Shown in pieces: positions 37-6,950 of a stretch of 44,284 nt of DNA. This DNA is from Gemmatimonadota bacterium (GTDB lineage: Bacteria > Gemmatimonadota > Gemmatimonadetes > Gemmatimonadales > GWC2-71-9), in contig VGVQ01000026.1 of NCBI GenBank assembly GCA_016874005.1, forward strand, positions 1-44,284. Reading direction: 5' to 3'. The notes under the pieces are model-generated. The model saw only the letters and a program-made list of their open reading frames with translations. It was not told the DNA's origin and searched no databases. The stretch's first letter is position 1, and every line of letters begins with the position of its first letter. Made by a program: the position numbers and the translations under genes.

Positions 37-1221
37 GTGGCTCGAACCGGGGCGCCACCGCGCCAGGTGAATGGTGGCTCGAGGACTTGGCGGCCGTCCC
101 CCAGCACCGAGTTGGCGTTTGCTGGGGCCGATTGGGTCGTAGCGGAATCGGCAAACGGGCCCCTGCGTGGTTTCCGGCACGTAACTTGGGCCAACGCGCC
201 ATCCGCCGTTGCAATTGGCTGGTACGACAGCGTTGCTTTAGCACAGGTACCTGGTCTGGAAGACATCAACCTCTTGCCCGGGTATGTGCATCTGAATGAG
301 GACCGCGTCGACTTCTGGCTTGAACCTGGCGAGTCATCTCAGCTGCTGTGCCTGGTCGCTCTTCCCCCGGGGGACTATCTGGTCAAGAGCTACTTCGTCG
401 GGGACCGGCGGACCGCGGATTTCTGGACTACACTTCCGCAAGCGGCCATCGGTAGCGGCCAGCGCGGCTGGCACAGAGCCCGGCGGCAACTCGGATATAC
501 TCCGCAGATGACTCACCCCCCCGTCGTGCGTTACAGTCCGGGCAAGGACGCCGGTTTCTCGCACGGCCTGCGTACCACTCGACCCAGCCGCGCCTGGCAA
601 GCAGTCGAGCGCTTCCTCGCCGACTGCGCTGATGTCACCGGCCCAACCCGGATCTGCTTGCGGGCGTACCGTCCGACCGAATGGGACGACGCCAGCGTCG
701 TCGATGCCTGGGTAGCTCATGCTCGGGAGCGGTTCGGCCCGCCCGACGTGACATCCGGCGGCGGCCGGATCTGGCCTAGCGGCGAGACGGCCGGAGGGGG
801 CTACCTCGAGTGGCGAGGCGATCCGGAGCGGTTTCGGGAATTCCTGGCTTATCTCAGCAGCCGCGAGCCGCTGCCCAAGGCCGTCCTTGGCCCAATCTCG
901 CTGTCCTGCGCGCATGGGTTTTTCTGGCGGGACCCCGACGGCCTCGGGCCTGTTCCCGAGCAGCTCGCCGGGCACTGTACCGATGATGGCAGCCTTCCGA
1001 ACTGGCTAGAAGTGAACTTGGCCCGACGCAGTTCCGTCCAGCCGGAGTTCTGGTTCCCGTACCCCCCGAACGATGGCCGCCTTCGAGACCTCTTGCGACT
1101 CGCGACCGCTGCGCTACCCTTTAGGTTGTCGGCCCGGCACTTTCGCTTGGCGGTGCCTCGTAATGATCAGCGCGGGTATCTGTTGCGGCGGTTCGATGCG
1201 GCCGCACTCCTTGCCGCCTAA
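37..1221 (+). CDS. Unrecognised 394-aa protein, integron-cassette-like 3' end
   Basis: I do not recognise this family. The protein is 394 aa from a GTG at 37; another in-frame GTG at 67 is possible, and the window edge hides the upstream region. It has no signal peptide or long hydrophobic segment, so a soluble protein is likely. The N-terminal half is rich in Trp and Gly. The C-terminal half has regular acidic/aromatic blocks (for example YLEWRGDPERFREFLAYL near residue 263), which loosely recalls immunity-type proteins, but no catalytic motif is visible. Its TAA stop lies inside GCCTAACAACGT (1216-1227), the way genes end in integron cassettes. The IS110 element begins about 240 bp downstream. 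Coding is supported by length and composition; function is unknown. Confidence 0.6.
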   Translation: MARTGAPPRQVNGGSRTWRPSPSTELAFAGADWVVAESANGPLRGFRHVTWANAPSAVAIGWYDSVALAQVPGLEDINLLPGYVHLNEDRVDFWLEPGESSQLLCLVALPPGDYLVKSYFVGDRRTADFWTTLPQAAIGSGQRGWHRARRQLGYTPQMTHPPVVRYSPGKDAGFSHGLRTTRPSRAWQAVERFLADCADVTGPTRICLRAYRPTEWDDASVVDAWVAHARERFGPPDVTSGGGRIWPSGETAGGGYLEWRGDPERFREFLAYLSSREPLPKAVLGPISLSCAHGFFWRDPDGLGPVPEQLAGHCTDDGSLPNWLEVNLARRSSVQPEFWFPYPPNDGRLRDLLRLATAALPFRLSARHFRLAVPRNDQRGYLLRRFDAAALLAA

Positions 1222-1222
1222 C
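1216..1222 (+). other. Possible left (R'') box of a disrupted attC site
   Basis: GCCTAAC matches the attC left core RYYYAAC and overlaps the stop codon of the upstream gene. The next bases, AACGT, give ACAACGT, which also follows the corresponding box of the better attC candidate at 3682-3774. No matching GTTRRRY right box with arm complementarity is present before the IS110 transposase. The site is therefore either split by the insertion, degenerate, or coincidental. Confidence 0.25.
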
Positions 1223-1309
1223 AACGTATCTGGACTCCTCCGGGTTTTTCCGCAAGGCCTCACACGATGACGGAGGTCGACTGCAGTCGTATCTCCGGCC
1301 CGTCACATC

Positions 1310-1325
1310 AGACCCCGAAGGGTCT
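1310..1325. terminator. Hairpin with CGAA/UUCG tetraloop
   Basis: AGACCC-CGAA-GGGTCT forms a perfect 6-bp stem. Read on the minus strand the loop is UUCG closed by C-G, an exceptionally stable tetraloop. It lies about 90 bp past the unrecognised gene and about 135 bp past the transposase stop on the other strand, so it could end either transcript. No T-tract follows. Confidence 0.35.
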
Positions 1326-1459
1326 CGGCCACGATGGATCAGTCGCGCGCGGGGAGCCAATCGCTTTCGCACGGCTCCGTCAGCCACCGTTGTTATCGGC
1401 ACGCCCCCGCGCCGGTCCGACCGGACGCCATCGTCGTGATCCCTTGCAGCCGTGCTGAC

Positions 1460-2485
1460 CTACGCGGCGGCCTCCCGGCGTTCGAAGGGCCGCTCGTCCC
1501 GCCAGACCCGCCAACAGACCCGCGCCAACTTGTTCGCTAACGCGACCGCTGCCACGTTGTGGCCGTTCCGCGCCGCCACCGCCTGAGCCCACACCCGGAG
1601 ATCATCCGGGCAGCGACTGACGGCCCCCGCCCGGAGCGCCGAGCGGGCCCCGTGCACCAGTAACATCCGGACGTAGCTGTTCCCGCGTTTGGTGATCGCC
1701 CCAAGGCGCCGGCCCGACCCCGACGAGTGTTCGCGCGGCGTCAAGCCGAGATAGGCGGCGAAATCGCGCCCGGAGCGAAACCGATGGGGCGTGCCGATGG
1801 CCGCGACGAGCGCGGTGGCGGTGAGCACGCCAATCCCCGGGATCGTCACCAACAGCTGCGCCGCCGGCATCGCGGTCGCGAGCTGCTCGATCGCCTGTCG
1901 CATCCCATCGGCCTTCGTCGCGAGCTCGCCGACGTCGTCGAGCAGCGCCTGGAGGGCCGGGCGTACGAAGGCAGGGACCGCGTCACTCGCGAGCGCCATC
2001 GCGGCCGCGGGCCCGACCTGGCGAGCGCCGAGCGGGATGACACAGCCGAACTCGCGCAGGTGGCCGCGAAGTTCGTTGATCCGGGCGGTCCGAGTGCGCA
2101 GGTAGGCCGCGCGGATCCGATGCAGCGCCCAGAGGCCTTGCTGCTCCGGTGACTTCACCGGCACCGGATCGAGTGCGTCGTTGCGGACCGCCTCGAGGAG
2201 GGCTTTGGCATCGGCGCGATCGGTCTTGTTGCCATCGCGATAGCGGGCCACATCGCCGGGGTGCAGCAGCGTCACCGGGTGGCCCTTGGCGCGGAGCGCT
2301 CGGCCCCAATGATGGGCCGAGCCGCACGCCTCCATGATCACCTCGGCGGCGGGTTCGAAGGCGACCGCGACCGGGAACTGGTGGCGGGTGACGCGCTGGC
2401 GTCGATCCACCCGGCCGGGGCGGGTGGAGACGGCGAGCTCGAAGACGGACTTTGCCACGTCGACCGCGATTTGGGTACGTTTCAT
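1460..2485 (-). CDS. IS110-family transposase (DEDD/serine recombinase)
   Basis: This 341-aa recombinase catalyses insertion and excision of the IS. The N-terminal RuvC-like DEDD domain begins KRTQIAVDVAKSVFELAV and contains KTDRADAKALLEAV. The C-terminal Transposase_20 domain shows TIPGIGVLTATALVAAIG, FAAYLGLTPREHSSGSG (with the serine region) and ITKRGNSYVRMLL. The length is usual for the family and the frame is intact. I chose ATG at 2485 because GGAGGAGGAG sits 4 nt upstream at 2499-2490; an in-frame ATG at 2539 would place 18 additional codons in the structured leader. The ribosome binding site can pair perfectly with an upstream segment (see the leader entry). Confidence 0.92.
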   Translation of the reverse strand: MKRTQIAVDVAKSVFELAVSTRPGRVDRRQRVTRHQFPVAVAFEPAAEVIMEACGSAHHWGRALRAKGHPVTLLHPGDVARYRDGNKTDRADAKALLEAVRNDALDPVPVKSPEQQGLWALHRIRAAYLRTRTARINELRGHLREFGCVIPLGARQVGPAAAMALASDAVPAFVRPALQALLDDVGELATKADGMRQAIEQLATAMPAAQLLVTIPGIGVLTATALVAAIGTPHRFRSGRDFAAYLGLTPREHSSGSGRRLGAITKRGNSYVRMLLVHGARSALRAGAVSRCPDDLRVWAQAVAARNGHNVAAVALANKLARVCWRVWRDERPFERREAAA

Positions 2486-2620
2486 TGGGCTCCTCCTCCA
2501 GCAGTGATGGCCCGCAGGGGCCGGTGGTACCTGGCACAATGGTGCCGTTCGGAGGAGGAGTCCATACCATCACTTGCAGCTGACCAAGCCGCTGCGCCTC
2601 TTCGCAGTTGAATTCTAGCC
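2486..2620 (-). ncRNA. Candidate IS110 bridge RNA region
   Basis: The non-coding segment directly upstream of the transposase is where IS110-group elements encode their bridge RNA. It contains three short hairpins: CTGCG/CGCAG at 2592-2607, GGCAC/GTGCC at 2533-2546, and GGCCC/GGGCC at 2509-2522. It also contains the sequence at 2569-2580 that nearly repeats the region just past the transposase stop (1439-1450), as a donor-binding guide would. RNA ends and loop assignments cannot be set from sequence alone. Confidence 0.35.
2490..2574 (-). promoter_or_regulatory. Transposase leader with interlocked pairings occluding the RBS
   Basis: In the minus-strand transcript the order is AGTGATGG (2574-2567), CTCCTCCTCC (2560-2551), hairpin GGCAC-CATT-GTGCC (2546-2533), hairpin GGCCC-CTGC-GGGCC (2522-2509), CCATCACT (2510-2503), GGAGGAGGAG (2499-2490), then ATG at 2485. 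AGTGATGG is fully complementary to CCATCACT (8 bp), and CTCCTCCTCC is fully complementary to GGAGGAGGAG (10 bp), which is the Shine-Dalgarno sequence. The pairs alternate 1-2-1'-2', a pseudoknot topology or two competing folds. Translational repression of the transposase is an inference; the complementarity is directly visible. Confidence 0.6.
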
Positions 2621-6867: not shown

Positions 6868-6883
6868 GTGCCGATGAACAGTC

Positions 6884-6944
6884 GGCCCGGGCGGGTGGAG
6901 ACGGCGAACTCGAACGCGGACTTCGCCACGTCGACGGCGATTTG
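6884..6944 (-). pseudogene. Relic of an IS110-family transposase 5' end
   Basis: These 61 bp match 2413-2473, the start of the intact IS110 transposase, at about 55 positions. They would encode QIAVDVAKSAFEFAVSTRPG on the minus strand. The similarity stops at both ends, the start-codon region is altered and out of frame, and the rest of the element is missing. It is therefore a scar of a second, diverged IS110 copy. It sits exactly between the acyl-CoA ligase and the DUF1445 gene, marking a past rearrangement. Confidence 0.8.
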
Positions 6945-6950
6945 AGATTC

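What the first reader, a model, noticed from the sequence alone, without database searches (positions are those of the whole stretch)
2490..2574. Interlocked long-range pairings in the IS110 leader occlude the transposase ribosome binding site
On the transposase strand, an 8-mer (AGTGATGG) and a 10-mer (CTCCTCCTCC) are followed, after two small hairpins, by their perfect complements in the same order. The result is a 1-2-1'-2' pseudoknot arrangement. Element 2' is the Shine-Dalgarno sequence 4 nt before the ATG. This could be a translational switch that holds transposase low and couples it to folding or transcription of the bridge RNA. I know of no described IS110 leader with this exact logic.
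Basis: partly seen in the sequence, partly recalled or inferred. Interest (0 to 1): 0.7.

Follow-up and report, generated by a model that had tools for sequence, protein, structure and literature searches.

The report
Transposon leader hides transposase ribosome site

Summary
Helix 2 (CTCCTCCTCC / GGAGGAGGAG, enclosing two hairpins) is real: about 13-14 bp with one A-C mismatch, holding the Shine-Dalgarno, and recurring in most IS1111-type elements examined, from Gemmatimonadota to Proteobacteria. Across 15 leaders 8 of 17 pairs change on both sides; 94% of cells pair, against 41-51% when the partner is slid. Helix 1 (AGTGATGG / CCATCACT) occurs only in this copy; relatives keep 3-6 bp there, and about two of its bases are target-site DNA. 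The element is IS1111-type, not IS110-type: 11-bp subterminal inverted repeats, a downstream 218-nt non-coding region, and an attC-like insertion point as for ISKpn4. In this lineage the anti-ribosome-site arm is the left subterminal repeat. Best explanation: a three-way-junction leader that masks the ribosome-binding site and keeps transposase translation low. ISPpu9 (IS110 family) is a measured precedent (26-fold). A speculative extension is that the right-end repeat, transcribed across a circle junction, competes for the left repeat and partly frees the site. Nothing was tested experimentally.

The parts
1460..2485 (-). IS1111-type DEDD transposase gene (341 aa), ATG at 2485
   Evidence: Pfam DEDD_Tnp_IS110 and Transposase_20 above cut-off; start codon aligned in relatives
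2553..2563 (-).
   Evidence: Perfect 11-bp inverted match to 1231-1241, found without reference to the leader fold
2550..2563 (-). P1 5' arm, about 14 nt (UGGACUCCUCCUCC)
   Evidence: Fold; covariation
2532..2546 (-). Hairpin P2 (GGCAC-loop-GUGCC), conserved; approximate limits
   Evidence: 100% paired in 15 leaders with changes on both sides at two pairs; fold
2508..2523 (-). Hairpin P3 (GGCCC-CUGC-GGGCC), variable in sequence; approximate limits
   Evidence: Fold of this and ten other leaders
2486..2499 (-).
2567..2574 (-).
2503..2510 (-).
1231..1241 (-). Right subterminal inverted repeat (IRR) GGAGGAGTCCA
1242..1459 (-). Downstream non-coding region (218 nt), expected to encode the seekRNA/bridge RNA; TAACAACG at 1395-1388 repeats the flanking target sequence at + strand 1219-1226
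   Evidence: Position by analogy with PMC11187229; conserved blocks in L004, L006, L010; sequence match read directly
1228..2572 (-). Whole insertion sequence (ends uncertain by 1-2 bp), inserted in an attC-like site
   Evidence: Flanks CAGCTGCAAG | CGTTGTTAGGC; the right flank has the core GTTRRRY a few bases from the end, as in ISKpn4

Best explanation
The 5' leader of this IS1111-type transposase mRNA folds as a three-way junction. A 12-14 bp closing helix (P1) pairs the left-end subterminal repeat with the sequence right before the start codon, enclosing two hairpins (P2, P3). P1 buries the Shine-Dalgarno, so any transcript that includes the left end, whether read-through from outside or begun at the circle-junction promoter, is translated poorly and transposase stays low. 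Shown here: the complementarity, its covariation across the family, its enrichment over permuted partners, and its position over the Shine-Dalgarno. Inferred: that the RNA folds this way in cells and that translation falls. Not shown: what, if anything, opens it.
For: In 15 diverse leaders 94.1% of P1+P2 cells are standard pairs, 8 of 17 pairs have changes on both sides, and all five covariation measures peak at the stated register and drop when the partner is slid; four of the five were reached by none of 500 shuffles. One P1 pair takes all four Watson-Crick forms. Own IRL:RBS duplexes average -17.0 kcal/mol over 12 clusters against -13.3 (sd 0.9) with partners permuted among elements that all have a ribosome site, 0 of 20000 permutations as good; 21 of 29 elements individually beat arm shuffles at 5%. 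Ten diverse leaders fold with the same closing helix over the ribosome site, most with two inner hairpins. Opening the Shine-Dalgarno of 14 helix-bearing leaders costs 5.2-20.1 kcal/mol (15.4 here) in read-through transcripts and 2.2-7.4 without the 5' arm. In L041, L043, L045, L047, L058 and L094 the helix lies mostly or wholly 3' of the IRL, which fits an RNA function better than a third copy of a DNA end. A covariance model finds 65 places in 33 of 394 class-level genomes; of 20 loci fetched, 16 have the transposase starting at the 3' end of the match. Precedent: loosening the ISPpu9 leader raised translation 26-fold.
Against: No RNA probing, transcript mapping or reporter data exist for this element. 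Some IS1111 members lack the pairing (L089, L092, L019, L023, and L101 of the IS4321 type), so it is not essential to the family. L006 changes one arm base without compensation in the ribosome-site arm while its right repeat follows. C-A mismatches recur at three P1 positions. In the attC-type lineage itself the helix coincides with the DNA repeat, so DNA-level constraint contributes to conservation there.
Confidence: 0.75

Rival explanations
1. Left-repeat toggle: the left repeat pairs with the ribosome-site arm (off) unless a transcript has crossed the right-end/left-end junction of a circle or tandem copy; then the right repeat pairs with the left repeat and frees the ribosome site (on).
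For: With the right end upstream, opening cost is lower than with the right repeat shuffled in 12 of 12 elements, by 5.2 kcal/mol on average. L011 and L029 fall to about the cost without the 5' arm.
Against: The effect follows automatically from having three mutually complementary stretches, so it is no evidence of selection. The predicted junction promoter would start transcription at the left repeat, after the right repeat, so only second-lap transcripts would carry both (inference). In the window the relief against the read-through context is small (15.4 to 13.3).
Confidence: 0.15
2. Protection from impinging transcription as in IS10/IS50: only read-through transcripts carry the 5' arm, and the element's own promoter starts inside it.
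For: The 5' arm sits at the extreme left end, where read-through enters; the opening cost is high in the read-through context.
Against: In junctions rebuilt from relatives a -10-like TATGAT/TATAAT spans the join, which would place the start at the first bases of P1, so the element's own mRNA would also carry the arm (the start site is not mapped). In the window the -35 is unconvincing.
Confidence: 0.3
3. DNA-level third end: the ribosome-site arm is an extra copy of the right repeat kept for transposase binding or end recognition, and RNA pairing is incidental.
For: In this lineage the arm matches the right repeat in sequence and orientation, and L107 holds a roughly 95-bp remnant whose leader runs straight into the right end, as if the two had recombined.
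Against: P2 is conserved and covaries; P1 extends beyond the repeat in most lineages and lies outside it in several; the arm abuts the start codon.
Confidence: 0.12
4. One reading: helices 1 and 2 form together and act as a switch.
For: Both helices are perfect in this copy.
Against: Helix 1 arises in 1.7% of shuffles, is 3-6 bp in all relatives, uses flank bases, and its 1' arm overlaps hairpin P3.
Confidence: 0.03

Closest known systems
ISPpu9 transposase 5'-UTR (Pseudomonas putida; PMC8450116)
   Same: IS110-family DEDD element; the leader buries the transposase ribosome-binding site; weakening mutations raised translation 26-fold
   Different: 244-nt leader, no clear terminal inverted repeats reported, an antisense RNA (Asr9) thought to open it; left-end repeat not described as the masking strand
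IS10, IS50, IS200 leaders that mask the transposase start in read-through RNA (from general knowledge)
   Same: Inverted repeat near the element end hides the ribosome site
   Different: Unrelated transposases; in IS10/IS50 the element's own promoter starts inside the repeat so its mRNA escapes, which is not indicated here
IS1111-attC elements ISKpn4/ISPst6 (PMC11187229)
   Same: Related transposase (49% to the ISKpn4-type copy), subterminal repeats, downstream non-coding region, same attC insertion position; the ISKpn4-type leader also pairs left repeat with ribosome site (8 bp)
   Different: The leader structure is not mentioned in the parts of that paper read here

Membership tests
IS1111 family (IS1111-attC group) | DEDD transposase with IS110/IS116 C-terminal domain, 330-350 aa | tested here: met
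   341 aa, both Pfam domains
IS1111 family (IS1111-attC group) | Subterminal inverted repeats of about 11-13 bp, with 7 bp left and 3 bp right extensions | tested here: met
   11-bp perfect repeat; extension lengths fit but the exact ends are uncertain by 1-2 bp
IS1111 family (IS1111-attC group) | Longer non-coding region downstream of the gene, encoding a seekRNA | tested here: inconclusive
   218 nt downstream with an 8-nt copy of the target flank; no RNA evidence
IS1111 family (IS1111-attC group) | Insertion in an attC site of a gene cassette | tested here: inconclusive
   Flank CGTTGTTAGGC matches the core position used by ISKpn4; no integron integrase above cut-off in the genome, the best at 253.8 of 265 bits
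IS110 group (bridge RNA in the upstream leader) | Long non-coding region upstream, very short terminal repeats | tested here: not met
   Upstream leader about 85 nt, downstream 218 nt, 11-bp repeats
Ribosome-site-masking transposase leader (ISPpu9 type) | Leader structure lowers transposase translation | not testable with these tools
   Structure and covariation only
Known Rfam family | Match at the gathering score | tested here: not met
   No match for the window or five relatives

The most novel reading that the evidence does not exclude
The left subterminal repeat of IS1111 elements is an RNA toggle strand that pairs with the ribosome site in integrated copies and with the right repeat in transcripts crossing a circle junction, so transposase translation reports whether the element is excised.
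Probability: 0.12. Interest if true: 0.8.

Novelty: new variant of a known kind. Interest (0 to 1): 0.52.

Why it matters
IS1111/IS110 elements are the source of RNA-guided recombinases now being developed as editing tools. A conserved leader that masks the transposase ribosome site would help explain why these elements are usually quiet, would add a second role to the long subterminal repeats that set IS1111 apart from IS110, and gives a simple handle (break P1) for studying transposase expression in assays.

Tried and rejected
Pseudoknot: rejected on relatives. Bridge RNA in this leader: rejected, since the element is IS1111-type with its non-coding region downstream. Simple Shine-Dalgarno/CCTCC chance pairing: controlled by permuting partners among elements that all have ribosome sites. 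Rfam: nothing. Viral contigs: no relatives by tblastn. Other copies in the own genome: only fragments. MAFFT misplaced a few bases of the 3' arm in some rows, so pair counts were also made with a register anchored near the start codon. Whether P2 mimics a seekRNA stem was considered and not tested. A pattern search for further mini-elements gave only L107; two other hits were ordinary leaders. The original ISEc11 junction-promoter paper is not held, so the start-site argument rests on rebuilt junctions only.

Full report
Observation. On the minus strand the four arms are exact and in the order 1-2-1'-2' with the ATG 4 nt after arm 2'. Helix 2 is well beyond chance (1 of 5000 shuffles reach 10 bp) while helix 1 is not remarkable (84 of 5000 reach 8 bp). 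The predicted fold of the leader contains helix 2, extended outward across one A-C mismatch, and the hairpins, with helix 1 open.

What the element is. The gene at 1460-2485 (-) encodes a 341-aa DEDD transposase. An 11-bp perfect inverted repeat flanks it: TGGACTCCTCC at 2563-2553 and GGAGGAGTCCA at 1241-1231. Subterminal repeats, a 218-nt downstream non-coding region and a short upstream leader are the marks of IS1111 rather than IS110 elements as set out in PMC11187229 and PMC11208160. The right flank CGTTGTTAGGC puts the attC core motif at about the distance seen for an ISKpn4 copy (TGAATTGTTAGATGC), so this looks like an IS1111-attC element, though an integron integrase above cut-off was not found in the genome.

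Relatives. Close relatives from Gemmatimonadota (60-69% identical transposase) and more distant ones from Proteobacteria were collected. In most, the stretch right before the ATG is complementary to the left-end region although both sequences differ between elements: GGACACCT/AGGTGTCC in Shewanella, GGTCGCC/GGCGACC in Aeromonas, TGCCGTCCTC/GAGGACGGCA in Kozakia, GGCCAACCTCTCG/CGAGAGGTTGGCC in L047. Ten such leaders fold with the same closing helix.

Statistics. In 29 elements whose left repeat was found independently by comparison with the right end, the own left-repeat:ribosome-site duplex is stronger than with arm shuffles at 5% in 21; over 12 sequence clusters the own pairings average -17.0 kcal/mol against -13.3 (sd 0.9) with permuted partners, none of 20000 permutations as good. 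On an alignment of 15 leaders 94.1% of P1 and P2 cells pair, 8 of 17 pairs have changes on both sides and 22 cells carry them, against 6.5 in shuffles; sliding the partner drops pairing to 41-51%. Anchoring the register near the start codon instead gives the same picture, with one position showing UA, CG, GC and AU pairs. These sequences are related, so shuffle counts are not probabilities; the slid control and the independent lineages carry the argument.

Helix 1. The left end is conserved as TGATGGG in close relatives, but its would-be partner is not: the longest match there is 3-6 bp in twelve relatives against 8 in this copy. The pseudoknot is therefore a feature of this copy alone and probably chance.

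RNA or DNA. Because arm 2 is also a DNA end repeat, conservation could reflect DNA recognition. Three things favour RNA: hairpin P2 is conserved and covaries; the ribosome-site arm abuts the start codon; and in six elements (L041, L043, L045, L047, L058, L094) the helix lies mostly or wholly beyond the repeat. A DNA contribution in the present lineage cannot be excluded. L107 holds a remnant of about 95 bp in which the leader runs directly into the right end, consistent with recombination between the ribosome-site arm and the right repeat, which are direct repeats.

Effect on translation (predicted). Among the 14 helix-bearing leaders, exposing the Shine-Dalgarno costs 5.2-20.1 kcal/mol in read-through transcripts and 4.3-21.0 in transcripts starting at the left repeat (15.4 and 15.7 here), but 2.2-7.4 when the 5' arm is absent; four elements without the helix (L089, L092, L019, L101) show low to moderate values (1.8-7.8). 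Junctions rebuilt from the two ends show a -10-like hexamer spanning the join in several relatives, with a TTG motif upstream of the right repeat, which would start transcription at the left repeat. If so, the element's own mRNA also carries the 5' arm and is also masked. No promoter-like site was found within the integrated element.

Toggle idea. With the right end placed upstream, the right repeat competes for the left one and lowers the opening cost relative to a shuffled right repeat in 12 of 12 elements, mean 5.2 kcal/mol. This is a physical consequence of three mutually complementary stretches and is not by itself evidence of function; it is offered as a testable possibility.

Distribution. 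A covariance model of the leader finds 65 places in 33 of 394 class-level genomes. Of 20 fetched loci, 16 have the transposase beginning at the 3' end of the match, two are cut by contig ends (L109, L113), one has a broken gene (L118) and one is the mini-element L107. No Rfam family matches.

Known or new. Masking of a transposase ribosome site by its leader is known in other IS families (general knowledge: IS10, IS50, IS200), and in the IS110 family it was shown for ISPpu9, where loosening the structure gave 26-fold more translation. In nine literature searches of the held library I found no description of the left subterminal repeat of IS1111 elements acting as the masking strand; subscription papers, among them the ISEc11 junction-promoter study, are not held. 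I file it as a new variant of a known kind.

Noticed in passing
L107:1501-1595: Solo element of about 95 bp made of an IS1111 leader fused directly to the right end in an attC-like site, with transposase and non-coding region missing; probably a deletion between the ribosome-site arm and the right repeat.
   Followed up: partly
window 6879-6950 (-): Short fragment resembling the start of the same transposase (24 residues, 79% identical) with no leader; a remnant of a second insertion.
   Followed up: partly
window 1395-1388 (-) and 1219-1226 (+): TAACAACG in the downstream non-coding region repeats the attC-like target flank, a candidate seekRNA guide; L004 has a similar match.
   Followed up: no
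L101, L100 (IS4321/IS5075) and L019, L023, L089, L092: IS1111-type elements in which the left repeat does not pair convincingly with the ribosome site, so the feature has been lost or never gained there (L100 judged from its near-identical leader).
   Followed up: no
G000 contig C14:46746-47444 (L125): Integrase just under the integron-integrase cut-off (253.8 of 265 bits); may be the integrase that goes with the attC-like site in the window.
   Followed up: no
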